From Rhizobium pisi (GTDB taxonomy: Bacteria > Pseudomonadota > Alphaproteobacteria > Rhizobiales > Rhizobiaceae), in the NCBI RefSeq assembly GCF_003938655.1, contig NZ_RJJT01000023.1, forward strand, positions 1 to 64,000: 64,000 nt of DNA, written 5' to 3'. Made by a program: the position numbers and the translations under genes. Numbering within the stretch: position 1 is the stretch's first letter; the number at the start of each line of letters is the position of its first letter. This document shows positions 8,879 through 54,064 of this stretch, in pieces. The notes beneath the pieces were generated by a model. That model was given only the letters and a program-made list of their open reading frames with translations, searched no databases and was not told the DNA's origin.

Positions 8879-8955
8879 AATTAATGCAGCACGGAAATGA
8901 GGAGAGGTCAACCGACCGCCAGGCTGTATTCGTTCAAAATGGGGAGGAGACCCAG

Positions 8956-10254
8956 ATGAAGAGCGCGACCGTCAGCGCATTGACGCTGAGCACTATTTTA
9001 TTTTCAGCATCCGCCGTTTTTGCCCAGGAACTCGCCACCAAAGACCGGATCGGCCTTGCCGATGCGCCAAAGACCCTCGTCGTCCGCCTGACGAACGACA
9101 GCCCGAACAATTCGGACCCCAATATCGCCGAGGGCTACCAGAAGCTTTTCGTCGACTTCATCAAGAAGCACCCGGACTGGAAATTGCAGATGCAATTCAT
9201 GTCCTCCGACATCGGCACCGAACAGGCCAAGATGCTGGAGCAGGCGAAGGCCGGCAACGCCCCTGATTGCGCCGCCGTCGACTCCTTCGTGCTCTCGCAG
9301 TTCATGGTCAATCATGTGCTGGCTGATTTCACGCCGTATTTCTCCAAGGAAGAAGTGGACGATCTCTTCCCCTTCATCCGCAACGGCATCACCGACAAGG
9401 ACAAGACGGTGCGCGCCTGGTGGTGGGATACGGACCTTCGCGTGCTCTACCGCAACAAATCGGTCGTCGCCGATGCGCCGCAGACCTGGGACGACCTGAA
9501 GAAGGCAGCGCTTGCCTCCACCAAGGAAGGCATGGAAGGCGTTCTCTTCAACGGCGGGCGCTGGGAAGGCACGACCTTCGACTGGCTGGCCAACTATTGG
9601 GCGCTCGGCGGCAAGCTCGTCGACGACTCGGGCAAGCCGGTGTTCGGCGAAGGCGAGAACAAGGAAAAATTCCTGAAGGCGCTGAACTATTTCAAGGATC
9701 TCGTCGATTCCGGTGCCGCGCCCAAGCGCGTCACCACGATCGCCAACTACGACGACATGAACGCCGCGGCCGCGGCGGCGACGACGGCGCTCTTCATCGG
9801 CGGCAACTGGCAATATGCGCAGCTGAAGGCGACGCTCGACGAAGGCGACTTCAAGAACTGGACCTTCTCGCCGATCCCCGGCCCCTCGGCCGACCAGAAG
9901 TCGACAGGCACCGGCGGCTGGACGATCGCGTCCTTCAGCAAGGACAAGGATAAGGTCGAGATGTGCGCCAACCTGGCGCGCGAAGTCTATATGGGACCGG
10001 CAAACGCACTTCAGCAGCAGCTGCCGACCCGCAAGTCGCTCTTCGACAAGTATGAGGTCTTCTCCACCGAAGCCAACAAGACCTTCGCCAAGGCTCTGGT
10101 CGACGGACAGGCGCGCCCCGGCGTGCCGATCTATCCCGAAATATCAAACCAGATCCAGATCATGATGGGCGACGTGCTCTCGGGAACGAAGAAACCGGAA
10201 GAAGCCCTGGATGCCGCATTCAGCGCGGCGATGGAGGCTTACAAGCGTCTCTGA
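8956..10254 (+). CDS. ABC sugar transporter, periplasmic binding protein
   Basis: A 432-residue family 1 extracellular solute-binding protein. The start at 8956 has GGGGAGGAG upstream; the longer upstream frame is not needed. A signal peptide ends at about VFA/QE (residue 22). Typical features are the KTLVVRLTNDSPNN strand after the signal, an aromatic-rich ligand region (RAWWWDTDLRVLYRN, near 153-167) and the FIGGNWQYAQL segment. It is the first gene of an operon with two permeases, a ROK regulator, an isomerase and an ATPase. It delivers an unidentified sugar to the membrane complex. Confidence 0.92.
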   Translation: MKSATVSALTLSTILFSASAVFAQELATKDRIGLADAPKTLVVRLTNDSPNNSDPNIAEGYQKLFVDFIKKHPDWKLQMQFMSSDIGTEQAKMLEQAKAGNAPDCAAVDSFVLSQFMVNHVLADFTPYFSKEEVDDLFPFIRNGITDKDKTVRAWWWDTDLRVLYRNKSVVADAPQTWDDLKKAALASTKEGMEGVLFNGGRWEGTTFDWLANYWALGGKLVDDSGKPVFGEGENKEKFLKALNYFKDLVDSGAAPKRVTTIANYDDMNAAAAAATTALFIGGNWQYAQLKATLDEGDFKNWTFSPIPGPSADQKSTGTGGWTIASFSKDKDKVEMCANLAREVYMGPANALQQQLPTRKSLFDKYEVFSTEANKTFAKALVDGQARPGVPIYPEISNQIQIMMGDVLSGTKKPEEALDAAFSAAMEAYKRL

Positions 10255-10339
10255 TCCCGGGCGTCCATGACCCTTGCAACCGCGGCGGCGCCTGCCCTTG
10301 AGGCGCCGTCGACAGTGCCAAACCCGGACAGAGAAGCTA

Positions 10340-11269
10340 ATGAGCCCTATTGCCATCGAGGCTGACAGCCCGCCTCAAAGCAGAACGTTCATGCGCCGGT
10401 TCGCCGGCGCCCCCCTGCCCTGGATCATGCCCGTGATCGTGGTGATCGGGATATTCTATCTCTATCCCGTCATCGACGTTTTCCGGCTCTCCTTCACCAA
10501 TGCGACGCTGATCGGCGACAATCAGGACTATACGCTGGGGTCGATCGCCAATGCGCTGAGCTCACCGCAGCTGCCCGATATTCTCTGGGCGACCCTGATC
10601 TTCGTCGGCGGCAGCGTCATCGGCCAACAGATCCTCGGCATTGCGGTCGCCGTCACCGTCATCCGCGGCGAAAAGCGCGGCCTGTTCGGCACCACGATCC
10701 TGCGGACGACGGCGCTCATCGCCTGGGTGGTGCCGGGCATTGCCGGCGGCATCATCTGGCAGATGCTGTTTTCCGAAGCGCCTTACGGTGCACTGAACAG
10801 CATTTTGAGGCTGATGCACATGCCGACCGTTGCCTGGCTTTCGGACCCCGCAATGGCGCCCTGGTCGACGCTGATCTCGAACATCTGGCGCGGCACCGCC
10901 TTTTCGATGGTCGTCATGTATGCGGCGCTGAAGGCGATCGATCCCTCGCTCTACGAAGCGGCCGAGGTCGATGGCGCCACGGCATCGCAGCAGTTCTTCT
11001 TCGTGACCCTTCCGCAGCTGCGCGCTGCCATCCTCGTCAACATGATCCTGATCACCATCCAGACGGTGAACACCTTCGATGCGATCATCACGCTGACGGG
11101 CGGCGGACCGGGACGCGCGACTGAGGTGATCTCGCTCTACGTCTTCAACATCGTTTTCCGAAACTACGACCTTTCAGGCGGCAGCGTGCTTTCCGTGCTG
11201 ATGCTGCTCATCAGCCTCGGACTTGCCTTCGTCTACGCGTCGTTCCTGCCGAAGGAGGAAGAGCAATGA
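10340..11269 (+). CDS. ABC sugar transporter permease (MalF/UgpA type)
   Basis: A 309-residue inner-membrane permease with about six hydrophobic segments. The EAA loop EAAEVDGATASQQFFFVTLPQL, near residue 215, contacts the ATPase. The start is the ATG at 10340. The gene overlaps the next permease by four bases (ATGA), so the two are translationally coupled. It forms the channel with the product of 11266-12108. Confidence 0.92.
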   Translation: MSPIAIEADSPPQSRTFMRRFAGAPLPWIMPVIVVIGIFYLYPVIDVFRLSFTNATLIGDNQDYTLGSIANALSSPQLPDILWATLIFVGGSVIGQQILGIAVAVTVIRGEKRGLFGTTILRTTALIAWVVPGIAGGIIWQMLFSEAPYGALNSILRLMHMPTVAWLSDPAMAPWSTLISNIWRGTAFSMVVMYAALKAIDPSLYEAAEVDGATASQQFFFVTLPQLRAAILVNMILITIQTVNTFDAIITLTGGGPGRATEVISLYVFNIVFRNYDLSGGSVLSVLMLLISLGLAFVYASFLPKEEEQ

Positions 11270-48427: not shown

Positions 48428-49033
48428 GTGAGTGGGCCGATGCGTGAACAAGTCCCGACCCCTGCCGAAAGCCTTAAAGACAGGGCGCGCGCTGCGCTGG
48501 GTCAGCGCAATCTCGTCCTTGTCGGACTGATGGGGGTAGGGAAGTCCTCGATCGGCCGGCCGGTTGCACAGCAGCTCGGCATTCCCTTCGTCGATTCCGA
48601 TGCCGAGATCGAGCGCGTCTCGCGCATGACGATTACCGAACTCTTTGCCGCCTATGGTGAGCTGGAGTTCCGGGCGCTGGAAACGCGTGTCATCAAGCGC
48701 CTCCTCCAGGATGGCCCACGTGTCGTCTCGACGGGGGGCGGCGCCTTCATCGACGAGAGTACGCGCCAGCAGGTCAAGCGCGGCAGCCTTTCCGTCTGGC
48801 TGAAGGCCGATCTCGACCTGCTGTGGAACCGCGTCAACAGACATGACGAACGACCGCTACTCAAGACCGAGAATCCGAAACAGACCCTCGAGAACCTGAT
48901 GAATGAGCGCTATCCAATCTATCAGGAAGCCGATCTCGCGGTTCTCTCCCGCGACGTGGGCAAGGACATCATGGTCAGGGAAGTCCTGGCCGCCATCGTC
49001 GAGGGAAAGACAGCAGAAAACAAAATGCCATGA
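48428..49033 (+). CDS. aroK: Shikimate kinase
   Basis: A 201-residue P-loop kinase phosphorylating shikimate in aromatic amino-acid synthesis. Walker A is GLMGVGKSSIG near 33-43. DSDAEIERVS (shikimate/Mg site), RALETRVI, STGGGAF and the lid arginine in RHDERPLL are present, so it looks active. The start is a GTG at 48428 after AAGGA, or the ATG at 48440. It overlaps the next gene by four bases. It is not next to aroB, the usual chromosomal partner, so it may be a second copy. Confidence 0.88.
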   Translation: MSGPMREQVPTPAESLKDRARAALGQRNLVLVGLMGVGKSSIGRPVAQQLGIPFVDSDAEIERVSRMTITELFAAYGELEFRALETRVIKRLLQDGPRVVSTGGGAFIDESTRQQVKRGSLSVWLKADLDLLWNRVNRHDERPLLKTENPKQTLENLMNERYPIYQEADLAVLSRDVGKDIMVREVLAAIVEGKTAENKMP

Positions 49034-50085
49034 AACTATTCGTTCTGCTGATGGGCTTTCCCGGTGTCGGAAAGCTGACGATCGCAATGGAATTAAGCCC
49101 GCTCCTGGCTGCAAAGGTCATTGACAATCATTGGTTCAATAACCCGATACTGCGTCTGCTCGACGACGACGGGACGACGCCCCTTCCGAATGGGATATGG
49201 GAATACACCGGACGAGTTCGGCAAGCCGTTCTGGACGCAATCGTCGCCTACGGCCCTCCCTCGGCAAATTTCATCTTCACACATGCCGGCACAGACGGCG
49301 ACGAGCGGAGTCTTCGCACGTTTGAGCAGATCGCCGGCGCGGCCCGACAATGCGAGGCGTTGCTGGTGCCGGTGAGATTGCTTTGCGATGAGGAGGAGCT
49401 TGCGCGTCGTGTTGCCACGCCGGCGCGTCGCGAGCGGTTAAAGTCGATTGACGTGCAGGCTTCCGGGGAGAAAAGCAGGCGATCTCAAGTCCTCGATCCC
49501 AGACATCAATTTACTCTGAATCTGGATGTCACCTTAAAAACAGCTGAAGCCAGCGCTGCGGCAATTCACCATCATATCTTGAGCATCGCGGCCGGCGATT
49601 TTGGTTCGCTTCAAAGCAATCGCGGCATGACGGGGCAAATCGAAATCCAATACGCGCTACGCAATGAGGCCGCTGCAATCAGCGAACTGGTGCAAAACAC
49701 AATTCGCGTCAGCAATGCGATGGACTATCCCGCCGAGGTCATAGAGAGGGTCGTGGGAAAATTCTCCCATGAAGCAGTCCTTGGATTAATGGAAAACCGT
49801 GTGGTCTGGATCGCGCGCCAGGGTGATGAGATCGTTGGCACAGCAAGTCTTGATGGGGACACGATAAGGACCGTCTTTGTGTCGCCAATGGCTCAAGGAC
49901 AGGGTGTTGGACGGCGTCTCATGGAGACGGTGGAAGCCGCTGCTCGTGAGGCCGGTATTGAGGTATTGCGTGTTCCGGCGTCTCTGACCGCCAGAAACTT
50001 CTATGCCCGTCTCGGCTACGACGAAGTGCGCGAAGTTCTCTATGGTCAGGAGCGCACTTTCCTCATGGAAAAACAAATCGCTTAG
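49030..50085 (+). CDS. P-loop kinase-like domain fused to a GNAT acetyltransferase
   Basis: A 351-residue two-domain protein. Residues 1-190 form a P-loop NTPase/kinase-like domain with Walker A LMGFPGVGKLTIAMEL (about 7-22), DNHWFNNPI, and a lid-like RRVATPARRERLKSID. Residues 200-351 form a GNAT acetyltransferase with the acetyl-CoA motif VFVSPMAQGQGVGRRLMETVEAAAREAG and NFYARLGYDEV. The start ATG overlaps the aroK stop, so the two are translationally coupled. No ribosome site precedes the internal Met at 49627, which favours a true fusion. The substrates are unknown; small-molecule modification is plausible. Confidence 0.78.
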   Translation: MKLFVLLMGFPGVGKLTIAMELSPLLAAKVIDNHWFNNPILRLLDDDGTTPLPNGIWEYTGRVRQAVLDAIVAYGPPSANFIFTHAGTDGDERSLRTFEQIAGAARQCEALLVPVRLLCDEEELARRVATPARRERLKSIDVQASGEKSRRSQVLDPRHQFTLNLDVTLKTAEASAAAIHHHILSIAAGDFGSLQSNRGMTGQIEIQYALRNEAAAISELVQNTIRVSNAMDYPAEVIERVVGKFSHEAVLGLMENRVVWIARQGDEIVGTASLDGDTIRTVFVSPMAQGQGVGRRLMETVEAAAREAGIEVLRVPASLTARNFYARLGYDEVREVLYGQERTFLMEKQIA

Positions 50086-50821: not shown

Positions 50822-51760
50822 TCACACGACCAGCGCCCCTTGTCGCTCGGCGAGCGTCACCACCGCGCGGGTTCCGGAGTTGAACTCAAGAAAATCCGCC
50901 TCGATGCCGTCGCTGAAGATTACGCCGTGTTCGGGCATTTCGGAGACGATGGTCAGGGGCTGGGATTCCGAGACGAGACCGGCGACGATGCTGGTGCCGG
51001 TCGTGCGGCTTGGAAAGGGTTCGCGCACGAAATAGCGCAGGTAATCCGCGTCCCAGGCGAAGGACATATCAAGCGTGGCGCGGTCGTGTTCGATCCCGAG
51101 CGTGCTCGCAGCTCCGATCCAGCCGGAATAGAGGCTCTTCAGCCAGCCGGTCGAGCCCATGCCGGTGGAGACGATGATGCCGCTGGAGGACTGGCGCTCC
51201 TCGCGATCCTCGGCATGCAGGACATAACGCGCCGAGACGTGGCTCTGCGGCCCGATGAAGAGATCGTTGACCGCATGGATGACGGCTCCGGTGTTGAGCG
51301 TCGCCTTGGCCATGCTGACGCGCTTGATCGGCCGCCGGTTTTTCAGCGCCTCGCCGATAACCCGGGGAAGGCTCTTGGTGTTGAAGGGAAGCAGGAGACC
51401 GTCCCAGCGCATCGGATCGGGATTGACGCCGAGAACCGGCTGGCCGTCGAGATATTTGAGCGTGTTGGCGACCAGACCGTCCTGGCCGAGCACCACGACG
51501 ACATCGTCGGCGCCGAAGACGAAGTTTGCGAGGTAGCGGCGCTCGAGGCGCTGCACGCGGGCGACCGCGCGCAGGCTCGCTTCCACCTCGGTGATGGCAG
51601 CTTCGCATCGCTTCTTTTCGGCGAGATAGTCGCTGAAATCGGCGCCGAGATGTTCGACATAGAACTGCGCCTGCTGCACCGTGTTGAACCGGGCGATGAG
51701 CTCGTCGAGCCGCGTCGGCCTGATGACCAGAATGATCTTGCGTTCGTCAGAGACCGGCAC
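50822..51760 (-). CDS. NAD kinase-like protein with altered GGDG motif
   Basis: A 312-residue protein of the NAD/NADH kinase fold. The N-terminal part carries VVVLGQDGLVANTLKYLDGQPVLGVNPDP (about 88-116), where the usual GGDG reads GQDG (92-95). AVNDLFIGPQSHVSARY (near 163-179, the NE/D motif) and SSGIIVSTGMGSTGWLKS (near 197-214) follow. The start is a GTG at 51758-51760 with AAGGACC upstream, and the gene overlaps the SPFH gene by 14 bases. It probably phosphorylates NAD or a related molecule, or only binds it. The divergent NrtR-type regulator supports an NAD link. Confidence 0.8.
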   Translation of the reverse strand: MPVSDERKIILVIRPTRLDELIARFNTVQQAQFYVEHLGADFSDYLAEKKRCEAAITEVEASLRAVARVQRLERRYLANFVFGADDVVVVLGQDGLVANTLKYLDGQPVLGVNPDPMRWDGLLLPFNTKSLPRVIGEALKNRRPIKRVSMAKATLNTGAVIHAVNDLFIGPQSHVSARYVLHAEDREERQSSSGIIVSTGMGSTGWLKSLYSGWIGAASTLGIEHDRATLDMSFAWDADYLRYFVREPFPSRTTGTSIVAGLVSESQPLTIVSEMPEHGVIFSDGIEADFLEFNSGTRAVVTLAERQGALVV

Positions 51761-52781
51761 GGTCCTTGCCCTCCTGCGGCTGCAAAATCTCCCTGAGAAG
51801 ATCGGGCGAGACGTTCAGCTGGCCGATCTTCGTCGCATTGTCGGCGAGATCGCGGAAGGCGAGCGCCATCAGCTGGCCCGGCTTCATGCCGACCGAGGCG
51901 AGCGCCTGCAGCACTTTCGGATCGGCCTGCTGGAAGGATTTCATCATCACCGTCATCGCATAGGCCTGGGCATCGGCCTCGGCCTGGGCGTTGGTCGCCG
52001 CAAGCGCCACCAGTTCGCGGTTCTGCTCCTCGAGCGCGATCTTGCCGGCCATTTCTTCCCGCCGGATCTGCAGCTGCCGCTCCTGCACGGCGCGCTCGGC
52101 TTCCAACTGGGCTTCGCGCACCTGCCGCCTCTTATTCTCCAGCGTGATCTCGGTGGCGATCTCGTTCTCCTTGATCGTCCGCTCCTGTTCGATCGCAGCA
52201 TTGCGGCGGGTGTATATGGCTTCGTCGGCCTGCCCGAGCAGGGCCTCGCGCGCATGCGCTTCCAGCGCCCTGGCCGTCTCGACCTTCGGCGTGACGGCGA
52301 GCAGCGACAGGCCGAGGATCTCAAGGCCAAGCGCTTCGATCGTCGGGTGTTTCTTTAGCGCTTCGGCCACACCGGCGACGAGCGCCTCGCCCGAGGCAAG
52401 CACCTCCTTCAGCGACAGCGTCTGAACCTCGGCCCGCATCGCCACCTGGACGCGGTCGATCACCCGGGTCGAAAGCTTCTGCGGATCTTCCGAGACGTAA
52501 GCACCCCGGCGATCGAGCGTGAAATTCAGAAGTGCCGCCGTGCGGCGCGGCTCAGCGATGCGGTAGGTGATCTGTCCCTGCACGGTCACTTCCTGGAAAT
52601 CCGATGTCACCAGAGGAAAGATGAAAGGATCGTTGACACTGGCCGTCGGCACCAGCACCAGCGAGCTCGATGGCGAAAAATGCCAGAACGCCAGGCCCGC
52701 ACCTTCGCGGACGGCGTTGCCGTTTTGATACTGGATGACGTATTGCGTGGGTTCCGTCTTGATGAAGCGCAGTCCGAACAT
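51747..52781 (-). CDS. SPFH/Band 7 domain protein
   Basis: A 344-residue protein from the ATG at 52779-52781, after AAGGAAACGG. Residues 5-200 form an SPFH domain (EVTVQGQITYRIAEPRRTAALLNF, then LSTRVIDRVQVAMRAEVQTLSLKEVLASGEALVAGV). A long charged coiled coil follows at about 205-285 (EQERTIKENEIATEITLENKRRQVREAQLEAERAV). No N-terminal membrane helix is seen, unlike most stomatins, so it may be a soluble or peripheral oligomer. It is cotranscribed with the NAD-kinase-like gene. The promoter region contains tandem NrtR-like operators. Confidence 0.85.
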   Translation of the reverse strand: MFGLRFIKTEPTQYVIQYQNGNAVREGAGLAFWHFSPSSSLVLVPTASVNDPFIFPLVTSDFQEVTVQGQITYRIAEPRRTAALLNFTLDRRGAYVSEDPQKLSTRVIDRVQVAMRAEVQTLSLKEVLASGEALVAGVAEALKKHPTIEALGLEILGLSLLAVTPKVETARALEAHAREALLGQADEAIYTRRNAAIEQERTIKENEIATEITLENKRRQVREAQLEAERAVQERQLQIRREEMAGKIALEEQNRELVALAATNAQAEADAQAYAMTVMMKSFQQADPKVLQALASVGMKPGQLMALAFRDLADNATKIGQLNVSPDLLREILQPQEGKDRAGL

Positions 52782-52839
52782 GTCCGTTTCCTTGTTTGCG
52801 CGGGCGCCTCGCCCGTGTCGACAAGGAGAAAAACACGAC

Positions 52840-52882
52840 TTAGTGACGAATGTCAACTAACTTAGTTGTTTATTTACACTAA
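52840..52882. promoter_or_regulatory. Tandem NrtR-like operators
   Basis: Two 21-base sites of the form TTAGT-N11-ACTAA lie at 52840-52860 and 52862-52882, so their centres are 22 bases apart, about two helical turns. Both resemble known NrtR boxes (TTAGTGT...ACTAA). They sit between the divergent SPFH gene and the NrtR-type gene. A TTGACA on the minus strand (52851-52856) is inside site 1 and a TTTACA on the plus strand (52873-52878) is inside site 2, so bound repressor would block both promoters. Confidence 0.75.
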
Positions 52883-52901
52883 GGCTGGCACATGTTATGC
52901 T
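52873..52901 (+). promoter_or_regulatory. Promoter of the NrtR-type gene, likely leaderless transcript
   Basis: TTTACA (52873-52878) and TATGCT (52896-52901) are exactly 17 bases apart. The start codon at 52908 is six bases after the -10 element, where transcription should begin. No ribosome site precedes the ATG. Confidence 0.6.
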
Positions 52902-52907
52902 CCCATC

Positions 52908-53603
52908 ATGACGACACACGACAATGACGCCTTCAAACCGATCGCGACCGTCGATCTCGCGATCTTCTCGCTGTCGCCGGCGGGCCTTTCCGTCCTCCTC
53001 ATCAGGCGGGCGGGCGCACCCTTTGCCGGTGACTGGGCCTTGCCCGGCGGATGGATCCATATCGACGAGGATGCGGATCTCGAGGCTGCGGCGCGCCGGG
53101 TGCTGAAGGAAAAGACCGGTGTGGAAACACCCTACCTCGAACAACTGCAAACGACGGGCAGCGCTGGCCGGGATCCGAGGGGCTGGAGCATCAGCATCGT
53201 CTATATCGCGCTGCTCTCGGCCGACGACGTCGAAGAACGGCGGGATGTGATGGCCGGGGATGCCGAATGGCGGCCGGTCGAGGGCGACGGCGTCGGCTTT
53301 CCCATCGCCTTCGATCATGCCTCGCTTATCAAGGAGGCGCTTTCCCGCATCCGGAACAAGGTCGAATATTCGAACCTGCCCGGCCATCTGCTGCCGGCCC
53401 GCTTCACGCTGAGCGAGCTGCAATCGGTCTATGAGAACCTTCTCGGCCGCAAGCTCGACAAATCGGCCTTTCGCAAACGCATGGCCGAAGCCGATTTCCT
53501 GGAGCCTGTCGAGGGCGAAATGCGCCGCGCCAGCAATCGGCCCGCCCAGGTCTTTCGCCTGAAGGACGCCCAGTCGCTGGTGCTCTTCGACCGGAGGATC
53601 TGA
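52908..53603 (+). CDS. nrtR: NrtR-family Nudix transcriptional regulator
   Basis: A 231-residue protein with an N-terminal Nudix-like domain (TVDLAIFSLSPAGLSVLLIRRAG, then WALPGGWIHIDEDADLEAAARRVLKEKTGV, a modified Nudix box) and a C-terminal winged helix (TLSELQSVYENLLGRKLDKSAFRKRMAEADFLEPV). This is the architecture of NrtR, a repressor that senses ADP-ribose and controls NAD metabolism genes. The start is the ATG at 52908. Two matching operators lie directly upstream, shared with the SPFH/NAD-kinase-like operon. Confidence 0.87.
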   Translation: MTTHDNDAFKPIATVDLAIFSLSPAGLSVLLIRRAGAPFAGDWALPGGWIHIDEDADLEAAARRVLKEKTGVETPYLEQLQTTGSAGRDPRGWSISIVYIALLSADDVEERRDVMAGDAEWRPVEGDGVGFPIAFDHASLIKEALSRIRNKVEYSNLPGHLLPARFTLSELQSVYENLLGRKLDKSAFRKRMAEADFLEPVEGEMRRASNRPAQVFRLKDAQSLVLFDRRI

Positions 53604-53743: not shown

Positions 53744-54064
53744 ATGCGTATGAAACTCATAGCGGCTTCGCTATTGGCTCTCGGCATGGCCACGTCAGCC
53801 TTCGCCCAGTCCAATCCGGCTCCCACAGGCGCAACGATGGACAAGAACCAGTCCGACCAGGGCGGCGGCGCCACCACCAAAATGAAGACCAAGAAGCCGA
53901 TAGCAACGGATTCGACCAAGACGGGTTCCACGACCCACAGCACGATGAAGATGCACAAGACCAAGTGCCGCAATCCGGTCAATAACTCTGCCAAGCTCCA
54001 GACGCAGGGCGGCACGAGCAATGCGACACCGATGGATGAAGCCTGCGCAGCGCATAACAACTGA
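53744..54064 (+). CDS. Small secreted protein rich in Thr, Lys and Met
   Basis: A 106-residue protein with a clear signal peptide ending near AFA/QS (residue 21). The mature part is polar and low in complexity (MDKNQSDQGGGATTKMKTKKPIATDSTKTGS...), with two Cys near the end (KCRNP and EACAAHNN) that could form a disulfide. The ATG at 53744 follows AGGAGGACACCAGG. No family is recognised. In style it resembles the MXKDX-type secreted proteins, such as the one at 63768. Confidence 0.65.
   Translation: MRMKLIAASLLALGMATSAFAQSNPAPTGATMDKNQSDQGGGATTKMKTKKPIATDSTKTGSTTHSTMKMHKTKCRNPVNNSAKLQTQGGTSNATPMDEACAAHNN

What the first reader, a model, noticed from the sequence alone, without database searches (positions are those of the whole stretch)
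50822..53603. NrtR-type regulator, SPFH protein and NAD-kinase-like protein as one module
Two tandem sites TTAGT-N11-ACTAA, 22 bases apart, lie between a Nudix/winged-helix NrtR regulator and a coupled SPFH plus NAD-kinase-like operon. Known NrtR regulons contain NAD salvage and synthesis genes. An SPFH scaffold with an NAD-kinase relative would be an unusual target and hints at a membrane- or complex-linked NAD(P) function controlled by ADP-ribose.
Basis: partly seen in the sequence, partly recalled or inferred. Interest (0 to 1): 0.7.

Follow-up and report, generated by a model that had tools for sequence, protein, structure and literature searches.

The report
Repressor-controlled scaffold and NAD-kinase-like gene module
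A repressor of a family known to sense a breakdown product of the cofactor NAD sits next to a tightly joined gene pair, a scaffold-type protein and a relative of the NAD kinase of animal mitochondria, and this pair turns out to be shared by bacteria of many phyla, in some of them beside genes that recycle NAD.

Summary
Two exact TTAGT-N11-ACTAA sites, 22 bases apart, lie between a divergent NrtR gene and an overlapping SPFH plus NAD-kinase-like (NADKL) pair. In the genus the tandem operator occurs in 12 of 60 genomes, exactly the 12 with full-length NADKL. It recurs in Bradyrhizobium, beta- and gammaproteobacteria: 27 of 37 divergent loci match at 17 or more of 20 bases; 0 of 853,421 other windows do. 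SPFH lies just upstream of NADKL in 37 of 37 and 79 of 80 loci; NrtR is near in 34 of 37 and 29 of 80. NAD-salvage or ADP-ribose genes adjoin a minority of relatives. NADKL resembles human mitochondrial NADK2 more than bacterial NadK in fold and keeps the catalytic Asp, but has GQDG for GGDG. Best reading: NAD breakdown releases ADP-ribose, NrtR leaves, and an SPFH-organised NADK2-like kinase restores NADP(H). Layout and operators rest on sequence; ligand, activity, complex and membrane link are inferred. NrtR is known; I found the SPFH-NADKL unit described in no paper held here.

The parts
50822..51760 (-). NADKL: NAD-kinase-fold protein, 312 aa, NADK2-like, motif GQDG instead of GGDG
   Evidence: ORF; AlphaFold2 model pLDDT 90.9; best structures human NADK2, Z 25.9; D94, N165, D166, W206 invariant in 64 aligned sequences
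51747..52781 (-). SPFH (Band 7) protein, 344 aa; its end overlaps the NADKL start by 14 bases
   Evidence: Band_7 52.4 bits; model with SPFH domain and a helix of residues 167-283; matches HflK/C, stomatin, erlin, prohibitin, flotillin, vault
52840..52860 (+). operator 1, TTAGT-N11-ACTAA; on the - strand it contains TTGACA, by eye the candidate -35 of the SPFH-NADKL pair
   Evidence: exact match; tandem pair in exactly the 12 of 60 genus genomes with NADKL; same TTGACA placement in relatives
52862..52882 (+). operator 2, TTAGT-N11-ACTAA; contains TTTACA, the candidate -35 of nrtR
   Evidence: exact match; promoter-like TTTACA-17-TATGCT at 52873-52901
52873..52901 (+). candidate nrtR promoter, -35 inside operator 2
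   Evidence: consensus scan, 9 of 12 matches; mean 0.4 in shuffles of the region
52908..53603 (+). NrtR-family regulator: Nudix domain with a degenerate Nudix box (by eye) plus winged helix, 231 aa
   Evidence: PF21906 E 5.7e-22, PF00293 E 1.9e-11; SoNrtR 3gz5 E 3.2e-45

Best explanation
A self-contained NAD(P) repair switch. NrtR sits on two tandem operators that cover the promoters of its own gene and of the SPFH-NADKL pair and keeps both low. When NAD is broken down, ADP-ribose rises, binds the Nudix domain and NrtR lets go. SPFH and NADKL are then made together; SPFH subunits assemble into a ring or cage that holds NADKL, a kinase of the mitochondrial NADK2 type, which phosphorylates newly recycled NAD(H) and so refills NADP(H) or moves NAD out of reach of NAD-consuming enzymes. 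Backed by sequence: gene layout, conserved operators, overlap of operators with candidate promoters, kinase fold, SPFH-NADKL pairing, NAD-salvage neighbours in some other bacteria. Inferred: ligand, repression, complex, substrate and physiological role.
For: Tandem operator (up to 2 mismatches) in exactly the 12 of 60 genus genomes with full-length NADKL and 0 of the other 48. At least 17 of 20 operator bases in 27 of 37 divergent loci, among them all 4 Bradyrhizobium loci, 4 betaproteobacteria and a gammaproteobacterium, against 0 of 853,421 windows elsewhere. Candidate SPFH promoters were found in 23 of 26 loci and candidate nrtR promoters in 17 of 26, and all of these overlap the operator. 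SPFH just upstream of NADKL in 37 of 37, 12 of 12 and 79 of 80 loci; with starts as placed by my script the genes overlap in 32 of 67 pairs. NADKL fold: human NADK2 is the best match by Foldseek, by VIA-align (Z 25.9, rmsd 3.1, 289 aligned; the other rows shown 21.1 or less) and by sequence profile (E 2.6e-14). D94, N165 and D166 invariant in 64 of 64. Related loci: NadE, isochorismatase-fold (nicotinamidase-like), PncB, NadM, NMN transporter, ADP-ribosylglycohydrolase, Macro, NADAR. In Pseudomonas, a paper states that NrtR binds ADP-ribose, which relieves the salvage genes, and reports that they are switched on in cells whose toxin depletes NAD (PMC11535050, passages).
Against: GGDG, found in all NAD kinases according to a review (PMC8553519, passages), is GQDG in 62 of 64 NADKL and GRDG in 2; the Asp of conserved region II is Ser, though human NADK2 has Ser there too. 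Canonical NadK is also present in the genome, so NADKL is not needed for basal NADP. NrtR is found at only 29 of 80 loci of the wide sample, so ADP-ribose control is not general. About three quarters of that sample have no salvage or ADP-ribose gene nearby, and none was found among the 7 window proteins scanned. The NCBIfam NrtR equivalog cut-off is not reached. The 24 codirectional NrtR loci do not show this operator (best 15 of 20), and 10 of 37 divergent ones score 15 or less. No complex was modelled.
Confidence: 0.5

Rival explanations
1. NADKL is a kinase of another NAD-derived substrate, such as free ADP-ribose, its phosphates or an RNA- or protein-linked ADP-ribose product; the module clears or marks products of NAD breakdown or ADP-ribosylation, with SPFH as the platform.
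For: Invariant Asp kept but the residue before it changed from Gly to Gln in 62 of 64. ADP-ribosylglycohydrolase at 9 of 80 loci, Macro at L147 and NADAR at L083 and L106 near the module; Hen1 and Pnkp-type RNA-repair genes directly after NADKL in one Clostridia locus.
Against: Closest fold is an NAD kinase; NAD salvage genes are also neighbours, which points to NAD synthesis as much as to clearance.
Confidence: 0.25
2. The module is an anti-phage or anti-toxin device that answers NAD depletion or ADP-ribosylation by an invader, like the host systems centred on ADP-ribosylglycohydrolase proposed in PMC9503650.
For: Patchy presence in the genus, 12 of 60; spread over many phyla and on plasmids, 64 records; Nudix-HTH regulators, Macro and NADAR are listed in that proposal.
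Against: No PADLOC model hits NADKL or SPFH; no relative confirmed in viral contigs or phage records; well-kept sequences, 59% mean column identity across phyla in a best-scoring sample, unlike fast-evolving conflict genes. Whether the module lies in defence islands was not tested.
Confidence: 0.12
3. NADKL is catalytically dead and acts as a nucleotide-binding sensor or cap on an SPFH ring; the pair is a regulatory scaffold.
For: GQDG instead of GGDG; Pfam NAD_kinase cut-off not reached.
Against: D94, N165, R246, E247, D284 and E287 are invariant in 64 of 64, which is unusual for a dead enzyme; human NADK2, a kinase with measured activity (PMC8553519, passages), shares the SSG and W changes.
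Confidence: 0.1

Closest known systems
NrtR regulators (Nudix plus winged helix; Shewanella NrtR 3gz5/3gz6, Mycobacterium NrtR)
   Same: Domain layout, E 3.2e-45 to 3gz5, palindromes at its own promoter, link to NAD genes
   Different: Target here is an SPFH plus NADK2-like pair; operator TTAGT-N11-ACTAA in tandem differs from the mycobacterial GTTTTCGA-N7-TCGAAAAC (PMC6800001, passages)
Mitochondrial NAD kinase NADK2 (human 7r4l, 7n29)
   Same: Best fold and profile match; SSG, W in place of Tyr, REP stretch
   Different: GQDG not GGDGT; bacterial, about 312 aa, encoded next to an SPFH gene
Canonical bacterial NadK
   Same: NAD kinase fold, N-D/E motif, catalytic Asp
   Different: Separate gene in the same genome; NADKL is below the Pfam NAD_kinase cut-off
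SPFH proteins (stomatin, HflK/C, erlin, prohibitin, flotillin)
   Same: SPFH domain followed by a long helix
   Different: No N-terminal membrane helix in the model; the next gene is NADKL. NfeD or FtsH partners, named for other SPFH proteins in PMC13086221 (passages), were not searched for
ADP-ribosylglycohydrolase-centred host systems of PMC9503650
   Same: Nudix-HTH regulator; Macro and NADAR as accessories at related loci
   Different: No glycohydrolase among the window proteins scanned; the main text of that paper has neither SPFH nor NAD kinase

Membership tests
NrtR | Nudix domain plus NrtR winged helix | tested here: met
   PF00293 and PF21906 over their cut-offs
NrtR | close to a characterised NrtR | tested here: met
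   3gz5 E 3.2e-45, residues 3-223
NrtR | NCBIfam equivalog NF050029 over its curated cut-off | tested here: not met
   218.9 bits against 400; so not filed as that exact equivalog
NrtR | conserved palindromic operator at its own promoter | tested here: met
NrtR | binds DNA, released by ADP-ribose | not testable with these tools
   needs purified protein
NrtR | targets include NAD metabolism genes | tested here: inconclusive
   the window target is a NADK2-like gene only; salvage genes adjoin some related loci
NAD kinase | NAD kinase fold | tested here: met
   Foldseek E 1.4e-20, Z 25.9 to NADK2
NAD kinase | GGDG motif | tested here: not met
   GQDG 62 of 64, GRDG 2 of 64; the Asp is invariant
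NAD kinase | NE/D motif | tested here: met
   N165-D166 in 64 of 64; N-E in more distant members
NAD kinase | conserved region II with Asp | tested here: not met
   Ser at that place in 64 of 64, as in human NADK2
NAD kinase | Pfam NAD_kinase gathering score | tested here: not met
   13.1 of 25.5 bits
NAD kinase | phosphorylates NAD | not testable with these tools
   assay needed
SPFH | Band_7 domain | tested here: met
   52.4 bits, cut-off 23.6
SPFH | membrane anchor | tested here: inconclusive
   no N-terminal helix in the model; highest 19-residue hydropathy of the window protein 1.47 at residue 146, in a strand region of the SPFH domain; 16 of 58 relatives reach 1.6
SPFH | forms a ring or cage | not testable with these tools
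   only monomers predicted
ADP-ribosylglycohydrolase-centred host system | ADP-ribosylglycohydrolase gene at the locus | tested here: not met
   none among the 7 window proteins scanned; present at 9 of 80 related loci

The most novel reading that the evidence does not exclude
The SPFH-NADKL unit is the bacterial counterpart of the mitochondrial NADK2 lineage: a second, scaffold-bound NAD kinase used across bacteria to rebuild NADP(H) after NAD loss, from which, or from a common ancestor with which, the NADK2 of mitochondria descends.
Probability: 0.2. Interest if true: 0.85.

Novelty: new variant of a known kind. Interest (0 to 1): 0.63.

Why it matters
[quoted passage not shown] that is not strict, since 2 of 40 genomes had two NAD_kinase_C matches. 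A separate NADK2-like family, next to an SPFH gene in nearly every locus read and in the Rhizobiales set near NrtR in 34 of 37, would mean that many bacteria form NADP on a protein platform, some of them in answer to NAD breakdown. It would give a simple bacterial model for human NADK2, and a defined job to one group of SPFH proteins. Plasmid annotation calls NADKL 'sugar kinase' or 'hypothetical protein' in most annotated records and 'ATP-NAD kinase PpnK-type protein' in one, so the link is mostly hidden.

Tried and rejected
Third genome site C33:274359 as a further NrtR target: rejected. It lies before a MarR-GNAT-like gene (named by eye), and the same dyad with up to one mismatch occurs in 21 of 60 genus genomes, 15 of them without full-length NADKL.

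Defence system already in PADLOC: no hit for NADKL or SPFH; NrtR hits PDC-S07 at E 0.015, taken as chance. Phage origin: no PHROG for NADKL; SPFH E 0.074 to one of unknown function; NrtR E 2.6e-14 to a MutT/Nudix family. Viral contigs: 46 stretches matched a short pattern, none confirmed; phage records: no match. E. coli genomes: no DNA match at blastn level.

A claim that NADK2 is far closer to NADKL than to NadK by sequence: not kept in strong form. The NADK2 stretches score 55.9 bits with the NADKL profile and 48.5 with a NadK profile. The tree of 43 sequences and 170 columns puts NADK2 with NADKL at ultrafast bootstrap 100, but it has one NADK2, given as two stretches, long branches, and only 16 NadKs: of 46 loci offered, 18 passed a motif filter, which dropped all Rhizobium NadKs, and 16 were used.

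L183 9006-10208, which I first took for a nicotinate phosphoribosyltransferase by eye, has no Pfam match at 0.01; not counted. FastTree gave no output; one search failed on duplicate names; one search is the run used. In one search no reversed or shuffled pattern was run; the control is all other windows of the same loci. The promoter check covers 26 of the 27 operator loci (L189's stretch was cut) and looked only in the short stretch that holds the operator, with a loose -10 rule, so overlap was likely in part by design.

Neighbour counts use query proteins taken from these same loci and have no matched random-locus control; they are descriptive. The mirror-tree correlation of NADKL and SPFH distances (r 0.74, 1540 pairs) has no species control and is not used.

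Papers: Rodionov et al. 2008 on NrtR regulons is not held (with a wrong DOI, with the right one), so I cannot exclude that it lists SPFH or kinase genes. Searches for SPFH or Band 7 with NAD kinase, NADK, Nudix, ADP-ribose, NAD salvage or NrtR found no paper on this unit in what was listed (searches list 20 of 75 and 20 of 295).
Full report
What is there. The window is part of a 6.67-Mb genome that is Rhizobium by its relatives: NADKL is 91.3% identical in Rhizobium sp. Pop5 and 90% in R. chutanense. On the minus strand lie SPFH (51747-52781) and NADKL (50822-51760), overlapping by 14 bases; on the plus strand lies the regulator (52908-53603). The regulator has a Nudix domain and the NrtR winged helix and matches Shewanella NrtR at E 3.2e-45. 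Its Nudix box, read by eye, is degenerate, as is known for NrtR (recalled). It falls short of NCBIfam's equivalog cut-off.

Operators. Both TTAGT-N11-ACTAA sites are exact and far beyond chance. In the genus sample the tandem form, with up to two mismatches in 20 bases, occurs in 12 of 60 genomes, once in each; these are the same 12 that have full-length NADKL; the reversed control pattern occurs in none. In a wider set of 37 divergent NrtR/SPFH loci (the window left out), 27 reach 17 or more of 20 bases, 14 of them all 20; none of 853,421 other windows in these and the codirectional loci reaches 17, and 2 reach 16. The 27 are 15 Rhizobium (among them L112 and L117, the same contigs as L065 and L062), 4 Bradyrhizobium, 2 others of the order (L080, L082), 4 betaproteobacteria (L146, L172, L178, L182), a gammaproteobacterium (L180) and a proteobacterium (L136). 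Ten divergent loci miss it (15 or less: L090, L173, L083, L084, L074, L188, L184, L097, L093, L098), and so do all 24 codirectional loci (best 15). Several of those show other inverted repeats by eye, which I did not test statistically.

Promoters. A promoter-like TTTACA-17-TATGCT for nrtR has its -35 inside operator 2. In 26 loci with the tandem operator, a candidate SPFH promoter was found in 23 and a candidate nrtR promoter in 17, and all of them overlap the operator. Two geometries occur: -35 inside the second site in Rhizobium and L080, -10 inside the first site in L082, Bradyrhizobium, beta- and gammaproteobacteria. These are loose consensus matches in a short stretch, with a rule that I set; they fit repression of both genes but do not show it.

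Distribution. Full-length NADKL is in 12 of 60 genus genomes, 8 of 199 family genomes, 21 of 297 order genomes and 12 of 398 phylum genomes; the own genome and some others recur in these counts. Plasmid records add Streptomyces, Kitasatospora and Treponema; 42 of 64 are Rhizobium, such as p42f of R. etli CFN 42. NADKL is thus patchy and widespread, and the outer neighbours differ even among Rhizobium loci, as if the three genes move as a unit.

Pairing. SPFH lies just upstream of NADKL on the same strand in 37 of 37 fetched loci with full-length NADKL, with the widest gaps, under 1 kb, at L094 and L096 (38 fetched; L072 holds only remnants); in 12 of 12 loci L099-L110, five of which repeat earlier ones; and in 79 of 80 of the wide set, the exception, L145, starting at a contig edge. 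With NADKL starts as placed by my script, 32 of 67 measured pairs overlap and 54 lie at 16 bases or less. NrtR lies within 1 kb in 34 of 37 (at L085 it is cut by the contig end), but at 100 bits or more anywhere in the locus in only 29 of 80 of the wide set (at L127 it is in two pieces). By record title 21 of these 29 are proteobacterial and none is Paenibacillus. So the SPFH-NADKL pair is the core, and NrtR is its neighbour in part of the range.

Neighbours elsewhere. Lentisphaerae locus L147 reads nicotinate phosphoribosyltransferase, NrtR, an isochorismatase-fold (nicotinamidase-like) gene, SPFH, NADKL, Macro, ADP-ribosylglycohydrolase, NMN transporter. Clostridium L149 has NrtR, a nicotinamidase-like gene, nicotinate phosphoribosyltransferase and an adenylyltransferase before SPFH-NADKL. 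NAD synthase follows at L167 and L179, NadM-type genes precede at L128, L143, L163. ADP-ribosylglycohydrolase occurs at 9 of 80 loci, all 10 proteins confirmed with Pfam; NADAR at L083 and L106, outside that set. In L174 Hen1 and a Pnkp-type repair protein directly follow NADKL. By one BLAST count 17 of 80 loci hold at least one of nine such query genes, L174 through Hen1 alone; L146 and L176 are added by the glycohydrolase cluster, so 19 of 80. The other 61 show none of these within reach. There is no random-locus control.

The kinase-like protein. The model is confident (pLDDT 90.9). The seven best Foldseek matches are human mitochondrial NADK2; VIA-align gives NADK2 Z 25.9, rmsd 3.1, 289 residues, and 21.1 or less for the other NAD kinases among the 50 rows shown. 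A profile of 64 NADKL finds NADK2 at E 2.6e-14 and yeast POS5 at 0.0019, and no bacterial NadK at 0.01, though many are in the PDB. NADKL and NADK2 share SSG where other NAD kinases have an Asp, and W where they have Tyr (motif roles from PMC8553519, passages). D94, N165, D166, R246, E247, D284 and E287 are invariant in 64 of 64; but GGDG is GQDG in 62 and GRDG in 2. It fails the GGDG test, so I call it NADK2-like and do not file it as an NAD kinase. The genome has a separate canonical NadK. The same review muses that human NADK2 might come from the alphaproteobacterial ancestor of mitochondria.

The scaffold. The SPFH model has the SPFH domain, a helix of residues 167-283 and no N-terminal membrane helix (mean pLDDT 83.3, weak after residue 280); it matches HflK/C, stomatin, erlin, prohibitin, flotillin and vault. 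A profile of 58 finds stomatin at E 6e-4. A ring or cage is likely from the family, a membrane link is open.

Mechanism. I take the module as an ADP-ribose-relieved switch that makes a scaffolded NADK2-like kinase after NAD loss. The sensing step rests on the family: in Pseudomonas, NrtR is said to bind ADP-ribose, and its salvage genes are switched on when a toxin depletes NAD (PMC11535050, passages). The kinase step rests on fold and residues. The scaffold step rests on gene pairing and family. None was measured. The chief rival is a kinase acting on ADP-ribose or a related product; the Gln beside the catalytic Asp and the ADP-ribose genes at some loci keep it open.

Known or new. NrtR regulation of NAD genes is known. 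A held proposal of anti-ADP-ribosylation systems uses Nudix-HTH regulators, Macro and NADAR (PMC9503650, section 3.8 read), but its main text has neither SPFH nor NAD kinase. A 2026 study of SPFH proteins in P. aeruginosa has no word beginning with NAD in its main text (PMC13086221, passages). Searches for SPFH with NAD kinase and Nudix, or with NADK, returned no paper. The 2008 NrtR paper could not be read. I therefore rate the unit a new variant of a known kind.

Noticed in passing
L004:6360-6380 (G000:C33:274359-274379): Perfect dyad TTAGTTGACTGAGTCAACTAA about 210 bases before a MarR-like gene joined to a GNAT-like part (names by eye); the dyad with up to one mismatch is in 21 of 60 genus genomes.
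   Followed up: partly
L191 (Moraxella osloensis pNP7-1) and L194 (Actinobacillus p405tetH): A complete Nudix-regulator, SPFH, NADKL set lies beside tetR(H)/tet(H) on one plasmid, and a partial NADKL stretch lies beside the same genes on a small plasmid.
   Followed up: no
L072 (G006:C33): Only end pieces of NrtR and NADKL remain, under 100 bases apart: it looks like a genome that has lost the module.
   Followed up: no
L074, L083, L084, L090: NrtR proteins of these loci have an intact Nudix box by eye, unlike the window's, so they may still hydrolyse their ligand.
   Followed up: no
L174:8937-12989: Hen1 and Pnkp-type RNA-repair genes directly follow SPFH-NADKL in a Clostridia genome.
   Followed up: partly
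L175:5102-6562 and 8931-11150: Two large genes on the same strand as SPFH-NADKL (486 and 739 aa) have no Pfam match at the limits used.
   Followed up: no
L067 (G009:C7:24308-24397): A second short NADKL C-terminal stretch lies about 860 bases downstream of the full gene, perhaps a partial duplication.
   Followed up: no
window 49030-50085: A 351-aa protein joins a P-loop kinase-like part (weak matches) to a GNAT acetyltransferase.
   Followed up: no
window 53744-54064: A small protein, 106 aa, with a signal-like start by eye, conserved near the module in four other Rhizobium loci.
   Followed up: no
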